NCBI GenBank assembly: GCA_030453055.1
Contig: JAKDLC010000042.1
Span: forward strand, 1-10,942
Direction: 5' to 3'
DNA from: Nitrosospira sp.
GTDB taxonomy: Bacteria > Pseudomonadota > Gammaproteobacteria > Burkholderiales > Nitrosomonadaceae
Length of the DNA: 10,942 nucleotides
Shown: positions 1 to 9,718 of the stretch, piece after piece
Numbering within the stretch: position 1 is the first letter of the stretch
Layout: the number at the start of each line of letters is the position of its first letter
Program-made: the position numbers and the translations under genes
The notes under the pieces: model-generated
The model's input: only the letters and a program-made list of their open reading frames with translations
What the model was told of the DNA's origin: nothing
Database searches by the model: none

Positions 1-534
1 AGCAGAAACGGTAGCTTCCAGCATGGCAAGCTGTATTCCTATCTGGGCAGTTGTCAATCCTCTTGCAATATATTTCAGCACCTGTAATTCAGTGGGCGTA
101 GGCTTTCTCTCAATCGGCATGTCCTCGATCTCATTTAGAGGCCATGTGTCGTTGCCGTTTCCTACCTCCCGTATGACTCGTACAGTTTCAATGCCTGGAG
201 CGTTTTTACTTATGAAACCATTAGCACCCACCAGTTTTGCTTGCTGGATGTACGGAGCGTCGTCATAGATGCTAAGTACTAGAATCTTCATTTTTTTGAA
301 ATCTGTTTTGATCTGCTCTGCGAGCACAAGTCCGCTCGGCCCATCATCCGACAAATGAATATCTATCAATATCAAATCAATCTCCGCCAGATCATTGCAA
401 TAACGCAGCGCTTCTTGCACGTCACTTGTTATGGCAATTACCTTAAAATCAGGTTGCGTCTCCAGCAAGCTTTTCAGGCTGTCTGCCATCAGTCGCTGAT
501 CTTCGACGAGGAGGATGTTCAGCTGTTTTTCCAT
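1..534 (-). CDS. NarL/FixJ-family response regulator, 3' end cut by window edge
   Basis: This is the DNA-binding partner of the adjacent histidine kinase. The start is the ATG at 534-532, giving MEKQLNILLVEDQRLMADSL; 178 codons are visible and the stop lies beyond the window. Residues about 5-120 form a receiver domain: acidic pocket E11/D12, phospho-acceptor D58 in LILIDIH, S88 in the Thr/Ser position and K110 in FISKN. From about residue 150 a LuxR-type helix-turn-helix begins (PTPTELQVLKYIARGLTTAQI, then LEATVS). Its start lies inside the kinase gene (16-bp overlap), so the two are probably translationally coupled. Regulators of this family dimerise on phosphorylation and bind short repeated sites. 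The GTAC-motif array upstream of the kinase and cstA is the obvious candidate target, but that link is inference. Confidence 0.93.
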   Translation of the reverse strand, partial: MEKQLNILLVEDQRLMADSLKSLLETQPDFKVIAITSDVQEALRYCNDLAEIDLILIDIHLSDDGPSGLVLAEQIKTDFKKMKILVLSIYDDAPYIQQAKLVGANGFISKNAPGIETVRVIREVGNGNDTWPLNEIEDMPIERKPTPTELQVLKYIARGLTTAQIGIQLAMLEATVSA

Positions 535-1883
535 GGGAAGAAGTTGATCAAGAAAATATTGCGGGGTTTACGGGGTACCCTGGCGGTTATGGTGGTGCCT
601 GCTGGCGAAAAATGGATAGTCAATTTCCCATCGATTCTTTCATCTTCGAGCCTTTCCCTTATGCTTTGCAATCCAAGGCCAGTTTTTCCTTCGAATTTGT
701 ATTTATCGAGATCAAAACCCACGCCATCATCGTTTATCTCAAGGGTGACATAACGCTCCTCTCCTACCAGACGAAGGATTATTTGGCTTGCTTTGGCATG
801 CTTCTGTATATTATCAAGCGCTGTCTGGGCGGTTCGATATAATGCCCATTCAGCATAAATAGGCAGGTTATTCACCTCGCCCTCCGAAATAAAAGTAATG
901 GGAGTATTGGGGTAGTCATGTGCGAACTGCCGTATGGCCGGTTCAAGACGGAAGTCCGTTAATATTTTTGCATGTAATTCATGCGCGATGTTTCGTATCT
1001 CCACGTTTACTTTTGCTATTCTCCCCGCCATTTCCCCCAGCGTGTCTTGTGTTGCAAAGGTATCCTGGGTCGAGCTCATTAATTTAAGCATGGCAGCTTC
1101 CATATGGTACTTAATGGCCCCTAGCTTTTGGCAGACCCCGTCGTGCAACTCGCGTGCGATCCGTTTCCGTGCTTTTTCCAAGGTATCCCGCTGTTCCCAT
1201 ATATTTAGTGCCAGGCCCAGGGAAATTATCACTAGCAAGGTCAACACCGTAATGACCAATATCCATAGCATGGTGCTAGTGATATTGTTCGATGCCTTTT
1301 TGTCAGCCTCCGCCAATGCCGCGTCGATATCATCCAGATAAACGCCTGTCCCCAGCATCCATCCCCACTCGGGCAGTCCAACAACGTATGCTCGCTTCGG
1401 CTTGGGCTCCAAAGTTGGAGTGGAAAATTTCGTATAGCTGTAGTCGTAGAAACCATCGCCTTTCTTAGCAATGTCAATCAGATCCTTGATGAGCGGTTTT
1501 CCGTTCTGATCCTTCTCTCCGATCATGCTCATTCCTACTTTTTCCTTTTGCTTGGGATGCATCAGCAAGGTCCCCTCCCGAAAGTCATAGAGGAAGAAGT
1601 ACCCGTCCACGCTGTATTCCAATCTCTCCAAAATTGCCTTGGCTGCATCCTGGGTAGCGGCATCTGATCTGCCCGATTCATACAGATGTGAAATTGCGAG
1701 CTTTGCCACTGCCACATAATTTTTCAATTCACTATCCTTGGTTGCAAGATAGGTAGTTTTAATGAGCTCCCGTTCCTGGTTGGCCAAGGAGTTCCCTTGA
1801 TAGAAGACTGTCAACGAAATGGCACACAGCGCCAGAAGTAGCGGGACAACCGCGAACAGGATGATCTTTTGTCTGAATTTCAT
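519..1883 (-). CDS. Cache-domain sensor histidine kinase (HisKA_3, NarX/DegS-like)
   Basis: A 454-residue membrane sensor kinase. TM1 is at about residues 7-29. A periplasmic single-Cache domain spans about 30-200, with the typical stretches VDGYFFLYD, TLLMHP and GWMLGTGVYLDDID. TM2 is at about 203-228. The HisKA_3 dimerisation and phosphotransfer box is RIARELHDGVCQKLG with phospho-acceptor H247. A HATPase domain follows, with N-box N358 (ALDNIQKHA), G1 box DDGVGF (385-390) and G2 GLGL (402-405). All catalytic motifs are intact, so the kinase should be active. It overlaps the response regulator gene by 16 bp and is divergent from cstA. Single-Cache domains of this type in chemoreceptors bind small carboxylates such as acetate, pyruvate and lactate; a ligand of that kind is inferred here from the cstA context only. 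No strong ribosome binding site is visible before the ATG at 1883. Confidence 0.93.
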   Translation of the reverse strand: MKFRQKIILFAVVPLLLALCAISLTVFYQGNSLANQERELIKTTYLATKDSELKNYVAVAKLAISHLYESGRSDAATQDAAKAILERLEYSVDGYFFLYDFREGTLLMHPKQKEKVGMSMIGEKDQNGKPLIKDLIDIAKKGDGFYDYSYTKFSTPTLEPKPKRAYVVGLPEWGWMLGTGVYLDDIDAALAEADKKASNNITSTMLWILVITVLTLLVIISLGLALNIWEQRDTLEKARKRIARELHDGVCQKLGAIKYHMEAAMLKLMSSTQDTFATQDTLGEMAGRIAKVNVEIRNIAHELHAKILTDFRLEPAIRQFAHDYPNTPITFISEGEVNNLPIYAEWALYRTAQTALDNIQKHAKASQIILRLVGEERYVTLEINDDGVGFDLDKYKFEGKTGLGLQSIRERLEDERIDGKLTIHFSPAGTTITARVPRKPRNIFLINFFPWKNS

Positions 1884-1917
1884 GGTCGGCTAAGCATATC
1901 AAGTGATTTGGCCTGCG

Positions 1918-2087
1918 TCACGTACGCACGATTACCTACACAGTTTCATGTACGCAGAAGCCTCTATTTCCCCTTCTGATTTATTCAAATAGCCTTATCC
2001 GTTTATGGCGAGTGCTTAAGCCTGGCAGGCGCAATTACGTACACAACGTGACGTACGTAATTCCAGGTACGTATTTCTAAGTACACA
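1918..2087. promoter_or_regulatory. Seven GTAC-centred motifs in two 14-bp-phased clusters
   Basis: The core tetramer lies at 1922, 1936 (CTAC) and 1950, then at 2039, 2053, 2067 and 2081, exactly 14 bp apart within each cluster. Consensus around it is TNANGTACRYA; copies at 1936, 2067 and 2081 each have one mismatch. Six exact GTACs fall in 163 bp, where fewer than one is expected by chance. The second cluster ends about 25 bp before the inferred TSS of cstA and the first lies close to the kinase gene, so one regulator could control both directions. The neighbouring NarL-type regulator is the natural candidate. Confidence 0.6.
2033..2062. repeat. Perfect inverted repeat, 10-bp arms with 10-bp spacer
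   Basis: AATTACGTAC at 2033-2042 is repeated inverted as GTACGTAATT at 2053-2062. Arm centres are 20 bp apart, close to two helical turns, so both sit on the same DNA face. The inverted repeat contains the first two motif copies of the second GTAC cluster. It would lie near -60 relative to a start site about 7 bp after the TATAGA box, a usual position for an activator. Confidence 0.6.
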
Positions 2088-2266
2088 AAACATCATATAG
2101 ATATTGGTTACCCCTTCACCTAGGATTTTTCAACCTGATTCGGTTTTGGTTTTGCATGAGATGAACGAGCCGAGTCAGCCGCCGCTAAAGCCATTTGTGC
2201 TCGGCTGATTTTATCTGCAAAGCGTTTGAAGGTTGCAATGCATCACTACGATGTTTGGGGGAAGAA

Positions 2267-4297
2267 ATGAATAGATTGATGAGTAAGTCGGCACTGTTTG
2301 CAATCTCCAGTTTGGGAACCGGCGCCTTTGCTGTCATCGCCTTGCAGCAGGGAGAATCAATTGGTGCCATCTGGATTGTCATCGCGGCCGTATGCGTCTA
2401 CACAATCGCTTACCGCTTCTACAGCCGCTTCATAGCGGAGCGGGTGCTGAGGCTCGACCCCACCCGCATGACGCCCGCTTACAAGTTCAACGACGGCCTG
2501 GATTACGTGCCAACCAATAGATACGTGTTATTCGGGCATCATTTTGCCGCGATTGCCGGCGCCGGGCCACTGGTAGGCCCGATATTGGCCGCCCAGATGG
2601 GCTATATGCCCGGCATGCTGTGGCTGCTGGCGGGCGTGGTCTTTGGGGGGGCAGTGCAGGACTTCACGGTGCTGTTCATTTCCACTCGCCGTGATGGCCG
2701 CTCGCTGGGCGATCTGATCAAGCGGGAAATGGGGCGGGCCTCCGGCATGATTGCCTTGTTCGGCACCTTCTTCATCATGCTGATCCTCCTGGCGGTGCTC
2801 GCACTCATCGTCGTCAAAGCCCTGGCCGAATCGCCGTGGGGCACCTTCACTGTGGCAGCTACCATCCCCATCGCCCTCTTGATGGGTGTTTACTCACGCT
2901 TTCTCCAGCCCGGTGCCATTGGCGAAGTCTCATTGATTGGTTTTATCCTGCTGATGCTCGCGATTGTGGGTGGCCAGTATGTGCAGGACATCCCCTCGCT
3001 GGCTGCTTTGTTCACCCTCACGGGCGAACAGCTCACCTGGCTCCTGATCGGTTATGGCTTCATCGCCTCCGTCTTGCCGGTGTGGCTGTTGCTTGCACCC
3101 CGGGACTACCTGTCCACCTTCCTCAAGATCGGCACCATTCTCGGACTTGCGATCGGCGTCCTCTTCATTTCCCCCGAACTCAAAATGCCGGCCTTCACGC
3201 AATTTACCGACGGGTCGGGTCCAGTCTGGTCGGGGAGTCTGTTTCCCTTCCTCTTCATTACCATCGCCTGCGGCGCGATATCGGGCTTCCATTCCCTGAT
3301 TTCGTCTGGCACCACCCCGAAGATGATCGGCAATGAAGCAGATGCACGCTTCATCGGTTATGGCGCGATGCTGACAGAGTCCTTTGTTGCGATTATGGCT
3401 CTGGTTGCCGCCTCCAGCCTGGAACCCGGCGTGTACTTTGCCATGAACAGCCCGGCGGCAATCATCGGCACAACCCCGGAATCAGCTGCGCAAACCATAT
3501 CCCAGTGGGGTTTTTACGTCACACCCGAGATGATCACTCAAACCGCGAAGGACGTGGGCGAGCATTCCATTATCTCCCGCACCGGCGGTGCGCCCACATT
3601 CGCGGTAGGTATGGCGCAGATCCTATCGGATGTAATAGGTGGAAGGAGCTTGATGGCATTCTGGTATCACTTCGCGATCCTGTTCGAGGCGCTATTTATT
3701 CTGACAGCGATAGATGCCGGTACACGGGTAGGACGGTTCATGCTGCAGGCACTGCTGGGCGCGTTCATTCCTGCGATGAAGCGTACTGATTCTATCGCCG
3801 CGAGCTTTATCGCAACTGGTCTGTGCGTAGGAGGGTGGGGCTATTTCCTCTACCAAGGGGTGGTCGATCCTTTGGGTGGCATCAATACCCTGTGGCCGCT
3901 GTTTGGCATCGCCAACCAGATGCTTGCAGGCATTGCGCTGATTCTCTGCACCTGCGTGCTGTTCAAGACCAAACGCGGCCGTTTTGCGTGGGTCACTATG
4001 GTCCCCGCTACATGGGTCATCGTGTGCACGCTTACCGCCGCCTGGCAGAAGATTTTCGACTCCAATCCACGCATCGGTTTCCTTGCGCATGCTGATTCAT
4101 ATACGACGGCCATCGCAAAGGAGGTCCTGCTTGCCCCCGCGAAATCCGCCGCCCAGATGCAACAGGTCATTTTTAATGATCATGTCAATGCATCGCTCAC
4201 GGCCATGTTCATGCTGGTATTGATCAGCATCCTGTTGTTCGGCATCAGAACGATTTTTCAAAAGGAAAGTAAGGAGATATCCGAATGTTATCCATGA
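2267..4297 (+). CDS. cstA: CstA-family pyruvate/peptide transporter (carbon starvation protein A)
   Basis: A polytopic inner-membrane protein of 676 residues, close to the roughly 700 of E. coli CstA. Family members are linked to peptide use during starvation and to pyruvate uptake (CstA and BtsT in E. coli). Family signature stretches are intact: DPTRMTPAYKFNDGLDYVP, VLFGHHFAAIAGAGPLVGP, AGVVFGGAVQDF, STRRDGRSLGDL, LAPRDYLSTFLKIGT, ISSGTTPKMIGNEADARFIG, WYHFAILFEALFILTAIDAG and GGINTLWPLFGIANQMLAG. ATG 2267 is chosen because the family N-terminus begins there and GGGGGAAG lies just upstream; the reading frame stays open back to a TTG at 2195, which would add 24 unlikely residues. It overlaps ybdD by 13 bp, the usual cstA-ybdD arrangement. 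Control by the divergent two-component system is inferred. Confidence 0.97.
   Translation: MNRLMSKSALFAISSLGTGAFAVIALQQGESIGAIWIVIAAVCVYTIAYRFYSRFIAERVLRLDPTRMTPAYKFNDGLDYVPTNRYVLFGHHFAAIAGAGPLVGPILAAQMGYMPGMLWLLAGVVFGGAVQDFTVLFISTRRDGRSLGDLIKREMGRASGMIALFGTFFIMLILLAVLALIVVKALAESPWGTFTVAATIPIALLMGVYSRFLQPGAIGEVSLIGFILLMLAIVGGQYVQDIPSLAALFTLTGEQLTWLLIGYGFIASVLPVWLLLAPRDYLSTFLKIGTILGLAIGVLFISPELKMPAFTQFTDGSGPVWSGSLFPFLFITIACGAISGFHSLISSGTTPKMIGNEADARFIGYGAMLTESFVAIMALVAASSLEPGVYFAMNSPAAIIGTTPESAAQTISQWGFYVTPEMITQTAKDVGEHSIISRTGGAPTFAVGMAQILSDVIGGRSLMAFWYHFAILFEALFILTAIDAGTRVGRFMLQALLGAFIPAMKRTDSIAASFIATGLCVGGWGYFLYQGVVDPLGGINTLWPLFGIANQMLAGIALILCTCVLFKTKRGRFAWVTMVPATWVIVCTLTAAWQKIFDSNPRIGFLAHADSYTTAIAKEVLLAPAKSAAQMQQVIFNDHVNASLTAMFMLVLISILLFGIRTIFQKESKEISECYP
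4271..4276 (+). promoter_or_regulatory. Ribosome binding site of ybdD inside cstA
   Basis: AAGGAG lies 8 bp before the ATG at 4285. This favours 4285 over the second in-frame ATG at 4294 and shows that ybdD is translated from within the end of cstA. Confidence 0.7.
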
Positions 4298-4571: not shown

Positions 4572-5330
4572 ATGAACGCAATAGAGGACTTGAACCCCAA
4601 CAAGCAGCCTGGTTTAGCCCCGATCCTGGTGAAACCGAAGCAATACCTCTTCGACGCACCTCTCGGATTATGGTTGGTGTTTTTAGCAATGGCCTGTTTC
4701 TCGTTTTATATCTCGCTGGAGTCTTTCTTTTCAGCCGAAAGCATTTGGGGCCCGGTTTTTATTCTCGCGATTCCGATATCGGTTGCGCATGTATGGCTAA
4801 GTAGAAAAAAACGCATACAGCGCGCTGTTTTCCTGGAAACCTATGAGTTTCCGCCCGCAATCAAGGATGAGGTCGCCACACGCTATCCGCATCTGTCGGA
4901 CGAGCAGTTGGTTTCGATAATTGAAGGGCTACGGCAGTATTTTCAGTTATGTCATGCGGCAGGACAGCAGATGGTTTCCATGCCTTCCCGGGTTGTGGAC
5001 GTTGCATGGCACGCATTTATCCTGTCCACGCATCTCTATGCGGAGTTCTGCAAAAACGGGCTGGGGCGCTTTCTCCACCACACCCGTGTGGACGACCTAA
5101 AGGAATCTAAACCCATCGTCCAAGGGTTGAAGGTCGCGTGGCTGTATGCCTGCAAGTGGGAAGCAATCGACCAAAAATCTCCGTCCAGGTTGCCTTTCCT
5201 GTTTGCCCTCGACGCAGCCCTCGCTATCCCGGATGGATTCTACCATCCCCTTGAAAATGACTACGCTACCGAGGGCACGGATGATGCTGGCGGTGGCGGT
5301 TGCGGCGGCGGATGTGGGGGTGGCTGTTAA
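4572..5330 (+). CDS. Membrane protein with GRDP-like domain and Gly/Cys tail
   Basis: A 252-residue protein of unknown function. Two membrane segments lie at about residues 31-52 and 57-77, followed by a cytoplasmic or otherwise soluble domain. Residues about 137-175 (PSRVVDVAWHAFILSTHLYAEFC, then GRFLHH) resemble the core motif of plant glycine-rich domain proteins (GRDP-like, formerly DUF1399), where a V-D-x-x-W-H box precedes a Y-x-x-x-C and an R-x-L-x-H. W146, H147, C160 and H169/H170 are the notable residues. The last 13 residues are only Gly and Cys with C244, C248 and C252 at four-residue spacing, a possible metal site or modification tail. The ribosome binding site AAGGAGGAG lies just before the ATG. 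It is codirectional with ybdD after an 89-bp gap, so cotranscription is possible. The domain call rests on motif recall alone. Confidence 0.8.
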   Translation: MNAIEDLNPNKQPGLAPILVKPKQYLFDAPLGLWLVFLAMACFSFYISLESFFSAESIWGPVFILAIPISVAHVWLSRKKRIQRAVFLETYEFPPAIKDEVATRYPHLSDEQLVSIIEGLRQYFQLCHAAGQQMVSMPSRVVDVAWHAFILSTHLYAEFCKNGLGRFLHHTRVDDLKESKPIVQGLKVAWLYACKWEAIDQKSPSRLPFLFALDAALAIPDGFYHPLENDYATEGTDDAGGGGCGGGCGGGC

Positions 5331-6187: not shown

Positions 6188-7318
6188 ATGAGCCTTGCAA
6201 CCGCTGCGTTGTTCCTCGCCGCCACCGCCGCATTGATTGCGGGGGCGGTGTGGTACCGCATGACCCACGTCGCAGACAAGCGCGATCTCCAATCACGGCT
6301 GGACTTCACCATCGGCAAATTCGTCAGCAAGGGGATGACGCCCGGCGTTGCCATCGGTGTGTACAAAGCCGGCCGATCGTTCGTCAAGGGCTACGGCCAG
6401 ACGTCGATGGAAGGCGGGCACACCACGGGGGCGGACACGGTCTTTGAGATCGGCTCGATCACCAAGCTGTTCACGGCCAGCGCGCTGCAGCAGATGTGCG
6501 ATGCAGGCCGATTGACCCTGGACACGACGCTGGCGGCCGTACTCGGCGAAGAGCGGCTGGATCCTGCCGTGCGCCACATCACGCTGCGGCAACTGGCCAG
6601 CCATCGATCCGGGTTGCCGGCATTTCCGCCTGACTATCTGAAGCGAGCGGACAGCACCGACAACATCTCCAGAGATTTCACCGTCTCGGACATGTACGCC
6701 TTCCTGGCCAAGCCCGGCGTGGAGATGCACCCAGGCAAGTTCTGCTACTCGAATTTCGGTGCTGGGCTGTTGGGCCATGTCCTGGAGCTCACGTCGGGGC
6801 AGCGCTACGAAGAACTGCTTCAGGAACTTCTCCTGCAACCGCTGGGCTTGACGTCGACCTTCGTGGCCTGGCCCGACAACACCCCTGCGGATACCGCGCA
6901 GGGTTACGGCATCGGCAAGACGCCCGCCGCGCCGCTTGATTGGTCTGGAGGCAGCCTGGACGGGGCAGGCTCCTTGAAATCAACCGCGGCCGACGTGCTG
7001 CGGCTGCTGTGTGCATTCGTGCAAGACCCGCCCACCGGCGCAGCGGCGAGCCTTCAGCGCACCTTGCCGACACCCTCGCGAGAAGCTGCGATCGGCTGGA
7101 TGACACCTACCTCGTTCGACAGGTTCCTGGGCAACAAGGAGATTGCCTGGCACAACGGCATGACACCGGGATTTGCTTCCTATGTGGCGGTGGATCCGCG
7201 CCGCAAGAGCGCGATCGTGTTGCTGATCAACCGTGCGGTGGATGTCACGATACCCGGCGCCATGCTAATGCGACACGTCCGTACGCAGTCGTGGGCTCTC
7301 AAGGAAACGGAAACGTAG
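6188..7318 (+). CDS. Serine hydrolase, class C beta-lactamase/esterase family
   Basis: A 376-residue protein with an N-terminal hydrophobic segment (residues about 3-22) that is either a membrane anchor or a signal peptide. The enzyme would therefore act in the periplasm. It has the penicillin-binding-protein fold signatures of the beta-lactamase family: nucleophile box S90-I-T-K93 in VFEIGSITKLFTA, the family stretch LRQLASHRSGLP (about 133-144), Y187-S-N189, and H322-N-G324 in the position of the KTG triad. HNG or HxG is common in esterases and peptidases of this family, so true beta-lactamase activity cannot be assumed. The gene is visibly richer in GC than the genes on both sides, which may indicate transfer. 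The ribosome binding site is weak (GGAAG about 8 bp upstream). No partner gene is adjacent; the Tn3-type element begins 53 bp downstream. Confidence 0.9.
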   Translation: MSLATAALFLAATAALIAGAVWYRMTHVADKRDLQSRLDFTIGKFVSKGMTPGVAIGVYKAGRSFVKGYGQTSMEGGHTTGADTVFEIGSITKLFTASALQQMCDAGRLTLDTTLAAVLGEERLDPAVRHITLRQLASHRSGLPAFPPDYLKRADSTDNISRDFTVSDMYAFLAKPGVEMHPGKFCYSNFGAGLLGHVLELTSGQRYEELLQELLLQPLGLTSTFVAWPDNTPADTAQGYGIGKTPAAPLDWSGGSLDGAGSLKSTAADVLRLLCAFVQDPPTGAAASLQRTLPTPSREAAIGWMTPTSFDRFLGNKEIAWHNGMTPGFASYVAVDPRRKSAIVLLINRAVDVTIPGAMLMRHVRTQSWALKETET

Positions 7319-7371
7319 GGACACCCCAGGTTTTCCTGACCGCGCGGGAGCACGGAGCAGGAAGGCCTACA

Positions 7372-7618
7372 GGGGTTGTAAGCCCAAACCCTCGGAATTT
7401 TCCCACGGTCTTTCAATCAATCTGTTAATCCAGTTTTATGTTTGCCAGCATTGTCTCAACATCGATTGGGTTATGGTTATTTCGAAAGGCATAATGCCCG
7501 AGGAAGTGGATATGCTGCCAAGCGACAGGCGAGATTTTCTTGAGGAGCTCCAGCGCTTTCTGATTGTCAGCTGCTTGATACCGGTCAAGCAACATCGACA
7601 GCAAGATCGAATTGTAGG
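7372..7618 (-). repeat. Left copy of 247-bp inverted repeat (Tn3-type end)
   Basis: Matches 9136-9382 in inverted orientation over 247 bp without gaps. The only difference seen is T7567 against the complement of G9187. The first 38 or so bases are the presumed transposon terminal repeat; the rest is the 3' end of tnpA. Similarity stops sharply after GTAGG at 7618. Confidence 0.95.
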
Positions 7619-7808
7619 CGGTCACCACATTCGCAATGAGCCACCCGCATTGGTTGCTGATCGCCACATCCAGGTCGGTTTTGCCGATCAGTTCCTTCTT
7701 GCCACCGACCTGCGTAATCACTGATCGCAATTGATGGTAAGCCTCAATGCGATTTTGCGAACGATGAACGTCCCGCTGCAGTTGCGGATCGCGCAGATAG
7801 CGTAGCGT
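7425..7808 (-). pseudogene. tnpA: Tn3-family transposase TnpA, C-terminal remnant (left)
   Basis: An open stretch of 127 sense codons running from 7808 to the TAA at 7425-7427. It includes YLRDPQLQRDVHRSQNRIEA, SNQCGWLIANVVTAYNSILL and KKISPVAWQHIHFLGHYAF, which match the end of Tn3-family TnpA (typically about 1000 residues), including the characteristic SPVAWQHI-FLG-Y motif before the terminus. All upstream catalytic DDE residues are missing. The reading frame runs into a TAG at 7811-7809, next to the TGTAGC end of the inner element at 7814. The intact terminal repeat follows 15 bp after the stop region, as in complete Tn3 elements. It cannot encode an active transposase. Confidence 0.85.
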
Positions 7809-7813
7809 CTAGA

Positions 7814-7983
7814 TGTAGCAACCTGCATTTGAAACAGCGCCGACCAGCATTTAGCGCGATTTTGAGCCAGCATTAGCTGCATCTATCGGCCCGGCAAACC
7901 AGAGATAATTGCAAATAAACCTGCATTCAGCCGGGCCGACCTGCATTTGATCGGCGCAAACCCGAATAAAATGCAACTGACCA
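7814..7983 (+). repeat. Left terminal region: five ACCTGCATT-like motifs
   Basis: Motif copies lie at 7821-7830, 7843-7852, 7866-7875 (degenerate), 7919-7928 and 7939-7948, a spacing of 22, 23, 53 and 20 bp. Between the third and fourth lies AACCAGAGATAATTGC, shared with the right end. The order and distances mirror the right terminal region, which is what a set of transposase-binding sites would show. Confidence 0.7.
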
Positions 7984-8965: not shown

Positions 8966-9135
8966 CGTCAATCGCACTTATTCCTGGTTCGCCGCGATGA
9001 AATGCAGGTCGGTGCGGATGAATGCAGGTTCATTCGCAATTATCTCTGGTTTGAGGTGGGCGCCGGTCGCTGTTAATTCCGGTCGAAAAAGCCGTTGAAT
9101 GCAGGTCGGGCCGTTTTTGATTGCAGGTCGCTACA
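8966..9135 (-). repeat. Right terminal region: five ACCTGCATT-like motifs
   Basis: Read on the minus strand from 9135, copies lie at 9128-9119, 9106-9097, 9083-9074 (degenerate), 9029-9020 and 9009-9000. Spacings of 22, 23, 54 and 20 bp are almost the same as in the left end. AACCAGAGATAATTGC is again between copies three and four. Sequence identity to the left end is partial, so the two ends diverged long before the recent 247-bp duplication outside them. Confidence 0.7.
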
Positions 9136-9329
9136 CCTACAATTCGATCTTGCTGTCGATGTTGCTTGACCGGTATCAAGCAGCTGGCAATCAGAAAGCG
9201 CTGGAGCTCCTCAAGAAAATCTCGCCTGTCGCTTGGCAGCATATCCACTTCCTCGGGCATTATGCCTTTCGAAATAACCATAACCCAATCGATGTTGAGA
9301 CAATGCTGGCAAACATAAAACTGGATTAA
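9136..9329 (+). pseudogene. tnpA: Tn3-family transposase TnpA, C-terminal remnant (right)
   Basis: The last 64 codons of tnpA, beginning YNSILLSMLLDRYQAAGNQK and ending ANIKLD, identical to the left remnant except for G in place of D in the AA[D/G]NQ stretch. The coding match starts exactly at the end of the inner element (GCTACA, 9135). An upstream in-frame ATG at 9099 lies inside that element and does not indicate a real gene. Only the extreme C-terminus of the transposase is present, so it is inactive. Confidence 0.85.
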
Positions 9330-9382
9330 CAGATTGATTGAAAGACCGTGGGAAAATTCCGAGGGTTTGGGCTTACAACCCC
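9136..9382 (+). repeat. Right copy of 247-bp inverted repeat (Tn3-type end)
   Basis: Inverted partner of 7372-7618 with one mismatch. It ends in ...GGGCTTACAACCCC at 9382, the outer tip of the transposon terminal repeat, directly followed by the truncated resolvase gene. Confidence 0.95.
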
Positions 9383-9718
9383 TTGATGGAAAAAGTCCAG
9401 CATGCCGGGGCGGGGTTCCAGAGCTTGACCGAAGCGATTGACACCACTTCGCCCGGTGGCCGTATGATGATGCAGATTGTCGGTGCATTTGCCGAATTCG
9501 AGCGGGCCATGCTGCGCGAGCGCACCCGAAATGGCCTGGATGCCGCACGTAGGGAAGGGCGTGTCGGAGGTCGGCGCCCAAAACTCAAGACACACCAGCG
9601 TCAGGAGATCATGCACTTGGTCAATTCCGGACAGAAGACCGCAGCGGATGTCGCCAGACTATTCAACGTCCATCCCGCTACCGTGTCGCGTCTCCTGCAA
9701 ACTGTTAAGGTGCCTTAA
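9383..9718 (+). pseudogene. Serine recombinase/resolvase (TnpR-like), N-terminal half missing
   Basis: Starts abruptly at the transposon tip with LMEKVQHAGAGFQSLTEAID, then TTSPGGRMMMQIVGAFAEFE, RAMLRERTRNGLDAARR and GRRPK, all typical of the second half of Tn3-type resolvases. A C-terminal helix-turn-helix follows (AADVARLFNVHPATVSRLL). About 70-80 N-terminal residues, including the catalytic serine of the Y-x-R-V-S motif, are absent, and they are not found left of 7372. The frame is open from an ATG at 9338 within the transposon end, so a fusion protein of 126 residues could be made, but it could only bind DNA, not recombine it. It is unclear whether this resolvase belonged to the same Tn3 element or was the target of an insertion. 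Confidence 0.85.

What the first reader, a model, noticed from the sequence alone, without database searches (positions are those of the whole stretch)
1918..2087. Seven-copy, 14-bp-phased GTAC motif array between a two-component system and cstA
The motif TNANGTACRYA occurs at core positions 1922, 1936, 1950 and again at 2039, 2053, 2067, 2081. Spacing is exactly 14 bp inside each cluster, a third of 42 bp (four helical turns). The two clusters sit one near each divergent gene, next to a LuxR-type response regulator. This looks like a cooperative operator of a kind I do not know for cstA, distinct from the tandem repeats bound by the LytTR regulators BtsR and YpdB in E. coli.
Basis: partly seen in the sequence, partly recalled or inferred. 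Interest (0 to 1): 0.72.

Follow-up and report, generated by a model that had tools for sequence, protein, structure and literature searches.

The report
Seven-site DNA switch for pyruvate transporter
Between a sensor-kinase gene and a likely pyruvate-uptake gene lies an evenly spaced row of seven near-identical DNA sites, most likely where the neighbouring regulator binds in several copies to switch both genes; related bacteria have sites of the same type in front of the same gene pair, but this evenly packed row was seen only here among the genomes searched.

Summary
The array is real. Seven TNANGTACRYA-like units (4 exact, 3 with one mismatch) sit at exact 14-bp pitch in clusters of 3 and 4. 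No other perfect 14-bp TACRYA pair exists in the held genome, nor a perfect three-unit array in 125 family genomes. Neighbours: a Cache-domain kinase, a LuxR-type regulator cut by the contig end, and CstA. In 13 of 13 loci from other families of the order with a homologous kinase divergent from cstA, the intergenic DNA holds dyads TRCGTAG-N2-CTRCGYA, usually two about 23 bp apart, the second 33-34 bp from a -10-like hexamer; two kin loci have mctP instead. A matrix from relatives' dyads picks sites in this array as its top three in 10.9 kb. Most likely this is the regulator family's operator, repacked into 14-bp arrays. Against: all 8 other family kinase-cstA loci lack it, including the closest cstA orthologues (whose regulators differ); half-site pairing is unresolved; no orthologous DNA could be read; no binding is shown.

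The parts
1..534 (-). LuxR/NarL-type response regulator gene, 3' end missing (contig end); receiver domain plus first half of the GerE helix-turn-helix
   Evidence: Pfam Response_reg and GerE; the window is C254:1-10942; longest contig of the identical protein is 10942; one 87% relative, P0122, carries the rest of the helix-turn-helix
519..1883 (-). Sensor histidine kinase, sCache_2 domain, HisKA_3, HATPase_c
   Evidence: Pfam; best NCBIfam model MctS at 323 bits, below its cut-off of 700
1918..1956 (.). Array 1: three units, cores 1922, 1936 (CTAC), 1950; may be read as dyads 1923-1938 and 1937-1952 plus end half-sites
1893..1898 (-). -10-like hexamer TATGCT for the kinase gene, 35 bp from the nearest dyad centre (weak)
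   Evidence: the consensus promoter scan finds none
2035..2088 (.). Array 2: four units, cores 2039, 2053, 2067, 2081; may be read as dyads 2040-2055, 2054-2069 and 2068-2083 plus end half-sites
2096..2101 (+). -10-like hexamer TATAGA for cstA (weak; geometry does not match relatives)
2267..4297 (+). cstA, carbon starvation protein / probable pyruvate symporter; one of two copies in this genome
   Evidence: Pfam CstA 867 bits; NCBIfam PRK15015 1039 bits, below its cut-off of 1188; second copy at C274
4285..4482 (+). Small KCU-star / Sel_put protein gene overlapping the end of cstA
   Evidence: Pfam Sel_put 86.7 bits; NCBIfam KCU-star 53 bits, below its cut-off of 85

Best explanation
The array is the operator of the adjacent two-component system. 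The Cache-domain kinase senses a small carboxylate outside the cell (pyruvate or similar; inferred) and phosphorylates the LuxR-type regulator. The regulator binds several times, as dimers, to TACRYR half-sites in both arrays: array 2 to turn on cstA, array 1 to adjust its own operon. The same regulator family elsewhere has separate 7-2-7 dyads (TRCGTAG-N2-CTRCGYA), usually two about 23 bp apart. Here the half-sites are packed at a 14-bp pitch, which can be read as a chain of 7-2-7 dyads overlapping by 2 bp. Shown by computation: the array, the shared half-site, the recurring dyads and their near-fixed distance to a -10-like hexamer in relatives. Inferred: binding, ligand, activation, autoregulation, cooperativity.
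For: Array beyond chance and unique in the own genome and in 125 family genomes. 13 of 13 kinase-cstA loci from other families of the order have a dyad scoring 11-14 of 14; between 0 and 13 of 200 shuffles reach the score. A NATACT or NATAGT hexamer lies 33 bp from the second dyad's centre in 8 of these 13 and 34 bp in 5. Two further loci with dyads have mctP as divergent gene; in one of them the hexamer is also at 33 bp, in the other none was found. 7 of 14 same-genus kinase loci not at cstA carry the dyad at 12 or more of 14. A matrix from 22 relatives' dyads scores window dyads 2068, 1923 and 2054 first to third and 2040 and 1937 fifth and sixth of all positions in 10.9 kb; their sum, 56.5, is not reached in 2000 shuffles, maximum 31.8. 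25 cstA upstream regions without a kinase, the own second cstA among them, score at most 10 of 14 for the dyad and at most 18 of 27 for a three-unit array; the window scores 26 of 27 (19, 6).
Against: No binding or expression data. 7-2-7 is not the best-scoring pairing inside the array: direct 14 bp 81.8, direct 18 bp 79.4, head-to-head offset 15 70.2, head-to-head offset 19 69.0, tail-to-tail offset 13 68.9, head-to-head overlap (offset 5) 66.5, direct 4 bp 64.7, direct 10 bp 63.6, 7-2-7 56.5. Eight of eight other kinase-cstA loci of the family lack both dyad and array (in L017 and L025 only 450 bp next to the kinase was scanned). Recognition helix and dyad go together only loosely: regulators at 7 of the 8 order loci without a dyad also have the SVRTVE[TA]HR helix (no regulator was found at the eighth), and same-genus regulators beside dyads have other helices. 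The window's regulator is cut inside its DNA-binding domain. No sigma-70 promoter is found, and the 33-34 bp geometry is not reproduced on the cstA side. Dyad consensus, matrix members and -10-like hexamers were chosen by eye from the same loci then scored. 8 of 11 order kinase loci not beside cstA lack the dyad.
Confidence: 0.72

Rival explanations
1. The unit is a true directional direct repeat: one regulator subunit per 14-bp unit, in head-to-tail order, independent of the 7-2-7 dyads of relatives.
For: The 14-bp direct pairing has the highest score (81.8); all seven units share orientation; invariant A3 and A11 break the palindrome. [quoted passage not shown]
Against: Units are near palindromes (YRYGTACRYR); the relatives' dyad matrix independently picks the array; dimeric NarL binds 7-2-7 inverted repeats (PMC7419079 passages).
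Confidence: 0.35
2. The array is bound by an unrelated transcription factor encoded elsewhere.
For: Other kinase-cstA loci of the family lack it; other regulator families can use similar short palindromes (general knowledge).
Against: No other perfect 14-bp pair in the held genome; half-site match to dyads at homologous kinase/regulator pairs; position between the two divergent genes.
Confidence: 0.17
3. A recent 14-bp tandem duplication without function.
For: Exact pitch; found in one genome of 125.
Against: Core columns are invariant while linker columns vary freely (1.0 against 0.19-0.29); two separate clusters out of register; Tandem Repeats Finder finds only 2.3 copies; match to an independent matrix.
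Confidence: 0.04

Closest known systems
NarL-type tandem 7-2-7 operators (E. coli ogt promoter, PMC7419079, passages)
   Same: Inverted heptamers with a 2-bp spacer; one site abuts the -35 region (-44.5) with a second upstream (-77.5), as in the order relatives here
   Different: ogt sites are 33 bp apart by their stated centres; here there are 14-bp arrays of 3 and 4 units, and a TACGYA heptamer (NarL heptamer TACYYMT is recalled)
MctS/MctR and RpuS/RpuR control of the monocarboxylate/pyruvate permease MctP in rhizobia (PMC9100948, passages and section 17)
   Same: Two-component system beside a pyruvate/monocarboxylate transporter; the kinase's best NCBIfam model is MctS; two kin loci here have mctP as divergent gene
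   Different: Kinase scores 323 against a cut-off of 700; transporter here is CstA; the RpuR site is an imperfect direct repeat at -80 to -43 whose letters I could not see
CrbS/CrbR (MxtR/ErdR) and the ACTU motif (PMC5715377, passages)
   Same: LuxR-type regulator, inverted repeat at -52 to -36 of its target promoter, acetate-utilization genes
   Different: The kinase has an SLC5 domain; its listed motif sequences are inverted repeats such as GACTAAAGTC, not TACGYA; not formally compared
BtsS/BtsR and YpdA/YpdB (PyrS/PyrR) of E. coli (PMC7730263, passages)
   Same: Two-component control of pyruvate uptake, including a CstA-family transporter (BtsT)
   Different: Those regulators are LytTR type (recalled); E. 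coli cstA itself is described there under CRP, Fis and CsrA

Membership tests
NarL/FixJ (LuxR-type) response regulators | Receiver domain plus GerE helix-turn-helix | tested here: met
   Response_reg 68.7 bits, GerE 24.9 bits on the truncated domain, both above cut-off
NarL-type 7-2-7 operator | Two inverted heptamers separated by 2 bp | tested here: inconclusive
   Relatives: yes. Window: five such dyads rank 1-3, 5 and 6 in 10.9 kb, but other pairings in the array score higher
MctS/MctR | Scores above NCBIfam equivalog cut-offs | tested here: not met
   Kinase 323.2 against 700; regulator (truncated) 74.7 against 300
MctS/MctR | Adjacent mctP | tested here: not met
   Window neighbour is cstA; mctP is the neighbour in kin loci L092 and L100
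LytTR-type pyruvate systems (BtsR/YpdB) | LytTR DNA-binding domain | tested here: not met
   GerE, not LytTR, in Pfam; the domain is cut by the contig end
CstA transporters | CstA domain over the full length | tested here: met
   PF02554, 867 bits, positions 2-560 of 560
CstA pyruvate/proton symporter equivalog (PRK15015) | Score above 1188 bits | tested here: not met
   1039.4 bits; pyruvate transport is therefore inferred
RpuR direct-repeat operator | Sequence of the repeat | not testable with these tools
   Figure not held
CrbR ACTU motif | Consensus match | not tested
   Only passages of the paper seen

The most novel reading that the evidence does not exclude
A LuxR-type response regulator whose family commonly uses isolated 7-2-7 dyads has evolved a dense operator in which dyads overlap by 2 bp at a 14-bp pitch, each dimer turned about 120 degrees from the last, so that dimers coat the DNA as a short helical filament and switch two divergent promoters sharply. 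This would be one outcome of rapid diversification of paralogous Cache-kinase/LuxR-regulator pairs and their operators in Nitrosospira-like ammonia oxidisers.
Probability: 0.2. Interest if true: 0.65.

Novelty: new variant of a known kind. Interest (0 to 1): 0.45.

Why it matters
It gives a testable operator, with a near-fixed distance to the promoter, for a two-component system next to cstA or mctP that my paper searches did not show described. It is also a natural case in which a regulator family keeps its half-site but changes how many sites are packed together. This lets operator spacing, dimer cooperativity and insulation between paralogous systems be tested, and bears on how autotrophic ammonia oxidisers may sense and take up organic acids.

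Tried and rejected
Chance tandem duplication: rejected on column conservation and independent matrix match. Simple conservation test in cstA orthologues: done, negative, but judged not decisive because the regulators there differ. Search for true orthologous DNA: the protein search finds kinases at 91%, 65-80% and 63-64% identity, but the family search of 125 genomes, listed to E 1e-90, has none above 48% over the full length; partial matches reach 56%. The class search of 369 genomes matched only the own genome at E up to 1e-80. One genome-contig scan found only a 30% relative; the viral scan with the alignment found no relative. The viral pattern scan gave 21 stretches with an exact three-unit match, not followed up. 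Rfam: nothing at gathering scores. Sigma-70 scan: nothing. My idea that 7-2-7 is the unique pairing was tested and dropped. Two-dyad pattern in 23 genus genomes, up to 2 mismatches: 41 hits against 46 for the backward control, so no excess overall; 3 of the 4 zero-mismatch hits lie within 160 bp upstream of kinases listed, the fourth (G008) was not examined; own genome 1 hit with one mismatch, control 3. Papers: searches did not show this system or array in their listings; that is what these searches of an open-licence library gave, not proof of absence. Papers seen: PMC5715377, PMC7730263 and PMC7419079 as passages; PMC9100948 as passages plus section 17; all others as search listings only. 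I also added six cstA upstream regions that one search had dropped because the alignment did not reach the start.

Full report
Observation. The 383-bp region between the kinase gene (519-1883, minus strand) and cstA (2267-4297, plus strand) holds seven 14-bp units at 1918, 1932, 1946 and 2035, 2049, 2063, 2077. Four match TNANGTACRYA exactly and three have one mismatch; the core at 1936 is CTAC. The in-register positions looked at beyond the clusters score at most 5 of 9, so the clusters end cleanly. TACRYA occurs 8 times on the + strand against a shuffle mean of 0.57 and maximum of 5 in 2000. In the held genome (2.5 Mb, 80% complete) every zero-mismatch TACRYA-N8-TACRYA row, 6 of 6, is here. 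In 125 family genomes the three-unit pattern with up to one mismatch is found in 4: the own genome, with all three zero-mismatch hits, and three others with one one-mismatch hit each, no more than the backward control gives.

Neighbours. The kinase has sCache_2, HisKA_3 and HATPase_c domains; the regulator has a receiver and a GerE domain cut by the contig end; CstA is full length. The best NCBIfam kinase model is MctS, below cut-off. cstA is one of two copies in this genome; 72 of 125 family genomes have cstA at E up to 1e-200, and 4 of 23 genus genomes have two copies.

Comparison within the family. Eight other kinase-cstA loci of the family (L010, L013, L014, L016, L017, L020, L025, L043) have neither array nor TACGYA dyad; best dyad score is 10 of 14. 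In L017 and L025 the genes are about 1.2 kb apart and only 450 bp next to the kinase was scored. L010 and L013 have the closest cstA (93% and 91%) but a 44% kinase and regulators with other recognition helices. So the regulator next to cstA has been replaced or has diverged quickly, and these loci do not test the array. 25 cstA upstream regions without a kinase, including the own second cstA, score at most 10 of 14 for the dyad and 18 of 27 for a three-unit array.

Comparison outside the family. A search of 399 order genomes with the kinase of L003 gave 24 genomes besides the own at E up to 1e-110. In 13, cstA is divergent next to it. All 13 have a dyad of the form TRCGTAG-N2-CTRCGYA scoring 11-14 of 14; 0 to 13 of 200 shuffles reach the score. 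The two best dyads are 21-25 bp apart in 12 of 13; in L098 the two top-scoring windows overlap. A NATACT or NATAGT hexamer, matching TATAAT at 4 of 6 positions, lies 33 bp from the second dyad's centre in 8 of 13 and 34 bp in 5. This is the geometry of an activator abutting the -35 region, comparable with NarL at -44.5 of ogt (PMC7419079 passages). Of the other 11 loci, L092 and L100 have mctP as divergent gene (NCBIfam monocarbox_MctP, 543 and 527 bits on partial proteins, below the full-length cut-off of 625) and dyads of 13 of 14; L105 has dyads with an unstudied neighbour; 8 have none. Of 14 same-genus kinase loci not at cstA, 7 carry the dyad at 12 or more of 14; L018 has 11; 6 have none, three of them with another regulator gene upstream.

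Regulators. Those of the 13 loci share the recognition helix SVRT[VA]E[TA]HR. This is not a clean predictor: regulators at 7 of the 8 order loci without a dyad also have SVRTVE[TA]HR (none was found at L102), and same-genus regulators beside dyads have other helices. Family loci without dyads mostly have other helices, except L014 and L020 (KVRTVEA). The window's (LEATVSA, then cut) is by eye most like L006-type paralogues (VEATVNTHR), whose dyad TACGTAATTCTGCGTA resembles window 2054-2069 TACGTAATTCCAGGTA.

Matrix test. A half-site matrix from 22 dyads of relatives, none from the window, was run over the whole window. The dyad positions expected if the array is a chain of 7-2-7 dyads (1923, 1937, 2040, 2054, 2068) rank 2, 6, 5, 3 and 1; their summed score is 56.5 against a shuffle maximum of 31.8 in 2000. 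In this reading the TNANGTA part of a unit is the right heptamer of one dyad and TACRYA the left heptamer of the next, sharing TA. Against it as the only reading: eight other pairings (direct 4, 10, 14 and 18 bp, tail-to-tail offset 13, head-to-head offsets 5, 15 and 19) score higher in the same array, in part because TACGTA is its own reverse complement. Pairing is therefore open.

Mechanism. Most likely the phosphorylated regulator binds both arrays in several copies, activating cstA and adjusting its own operon; the signal is probably pyruvate or another small monocarboxylate, inferred from CstA and MctP as the family's neighbours and from the Cache domain. A 14-bp pitch turns successive sites by about 120 degrees, so three units make four helical turns; whether adjacent sites are filled together is unknown. 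No convincing promoter is seen in the window; the best -10-like hexamers are TATGCT, 35 bp from an array-1 dyad centre, and, on the cstA side, 4-of-6 matches such as CATCAT (32 bp from one array-2 dyad centre) and TATAGA (23 or 37 bp).

Verdict. Limits: consensus, matrix members and hexamers were chosen by eye from the loci then scored, related loci are not independent, no orthologous DNA was available, and nothing was tested at the bench.

Noticed in passing
window 7371-7618 and 9136-9383: A perfect 248-bp inverted repeat, arms 1517 bp apart, overlapping the 3' end of a Tn3-family transposase frame (7425-7730, Pfam), with a resolvase fragment at 9338-9718 at the other arm.
   Followed up: partly
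window 7895-7981 and 8967-9053: A second, inner 87-bp inverted repeat, 82% complementary, nested inside the first.
   Followed up: no
window 6188-7318: Protein of the serine beta-lactamase-fold family (PF00144, 198 bits); which enzyme it is was not studied.
   Followed up: no
window 4572-5330; L017 and L025 between kinase and cstA: A 252-aa protein with a Gly/Cys-rich C-terminus and no Pfam or NCBIfam match; by eye, similar coding sequence lies between kinase and cstA in L017 and L025, so it may belong to the same system.
   Followed up: no
loci L004-L025: Same-genus genomes hold up to six paralogous Cache kinases of this type at E up to 1e-60, some in tandem with LuxR-type regulators whose recognition helices differ strongly.
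   Followed up: partly
L092 and L100: The same dyad sits between a homologous kinase and mctP.
   Followed up: partly
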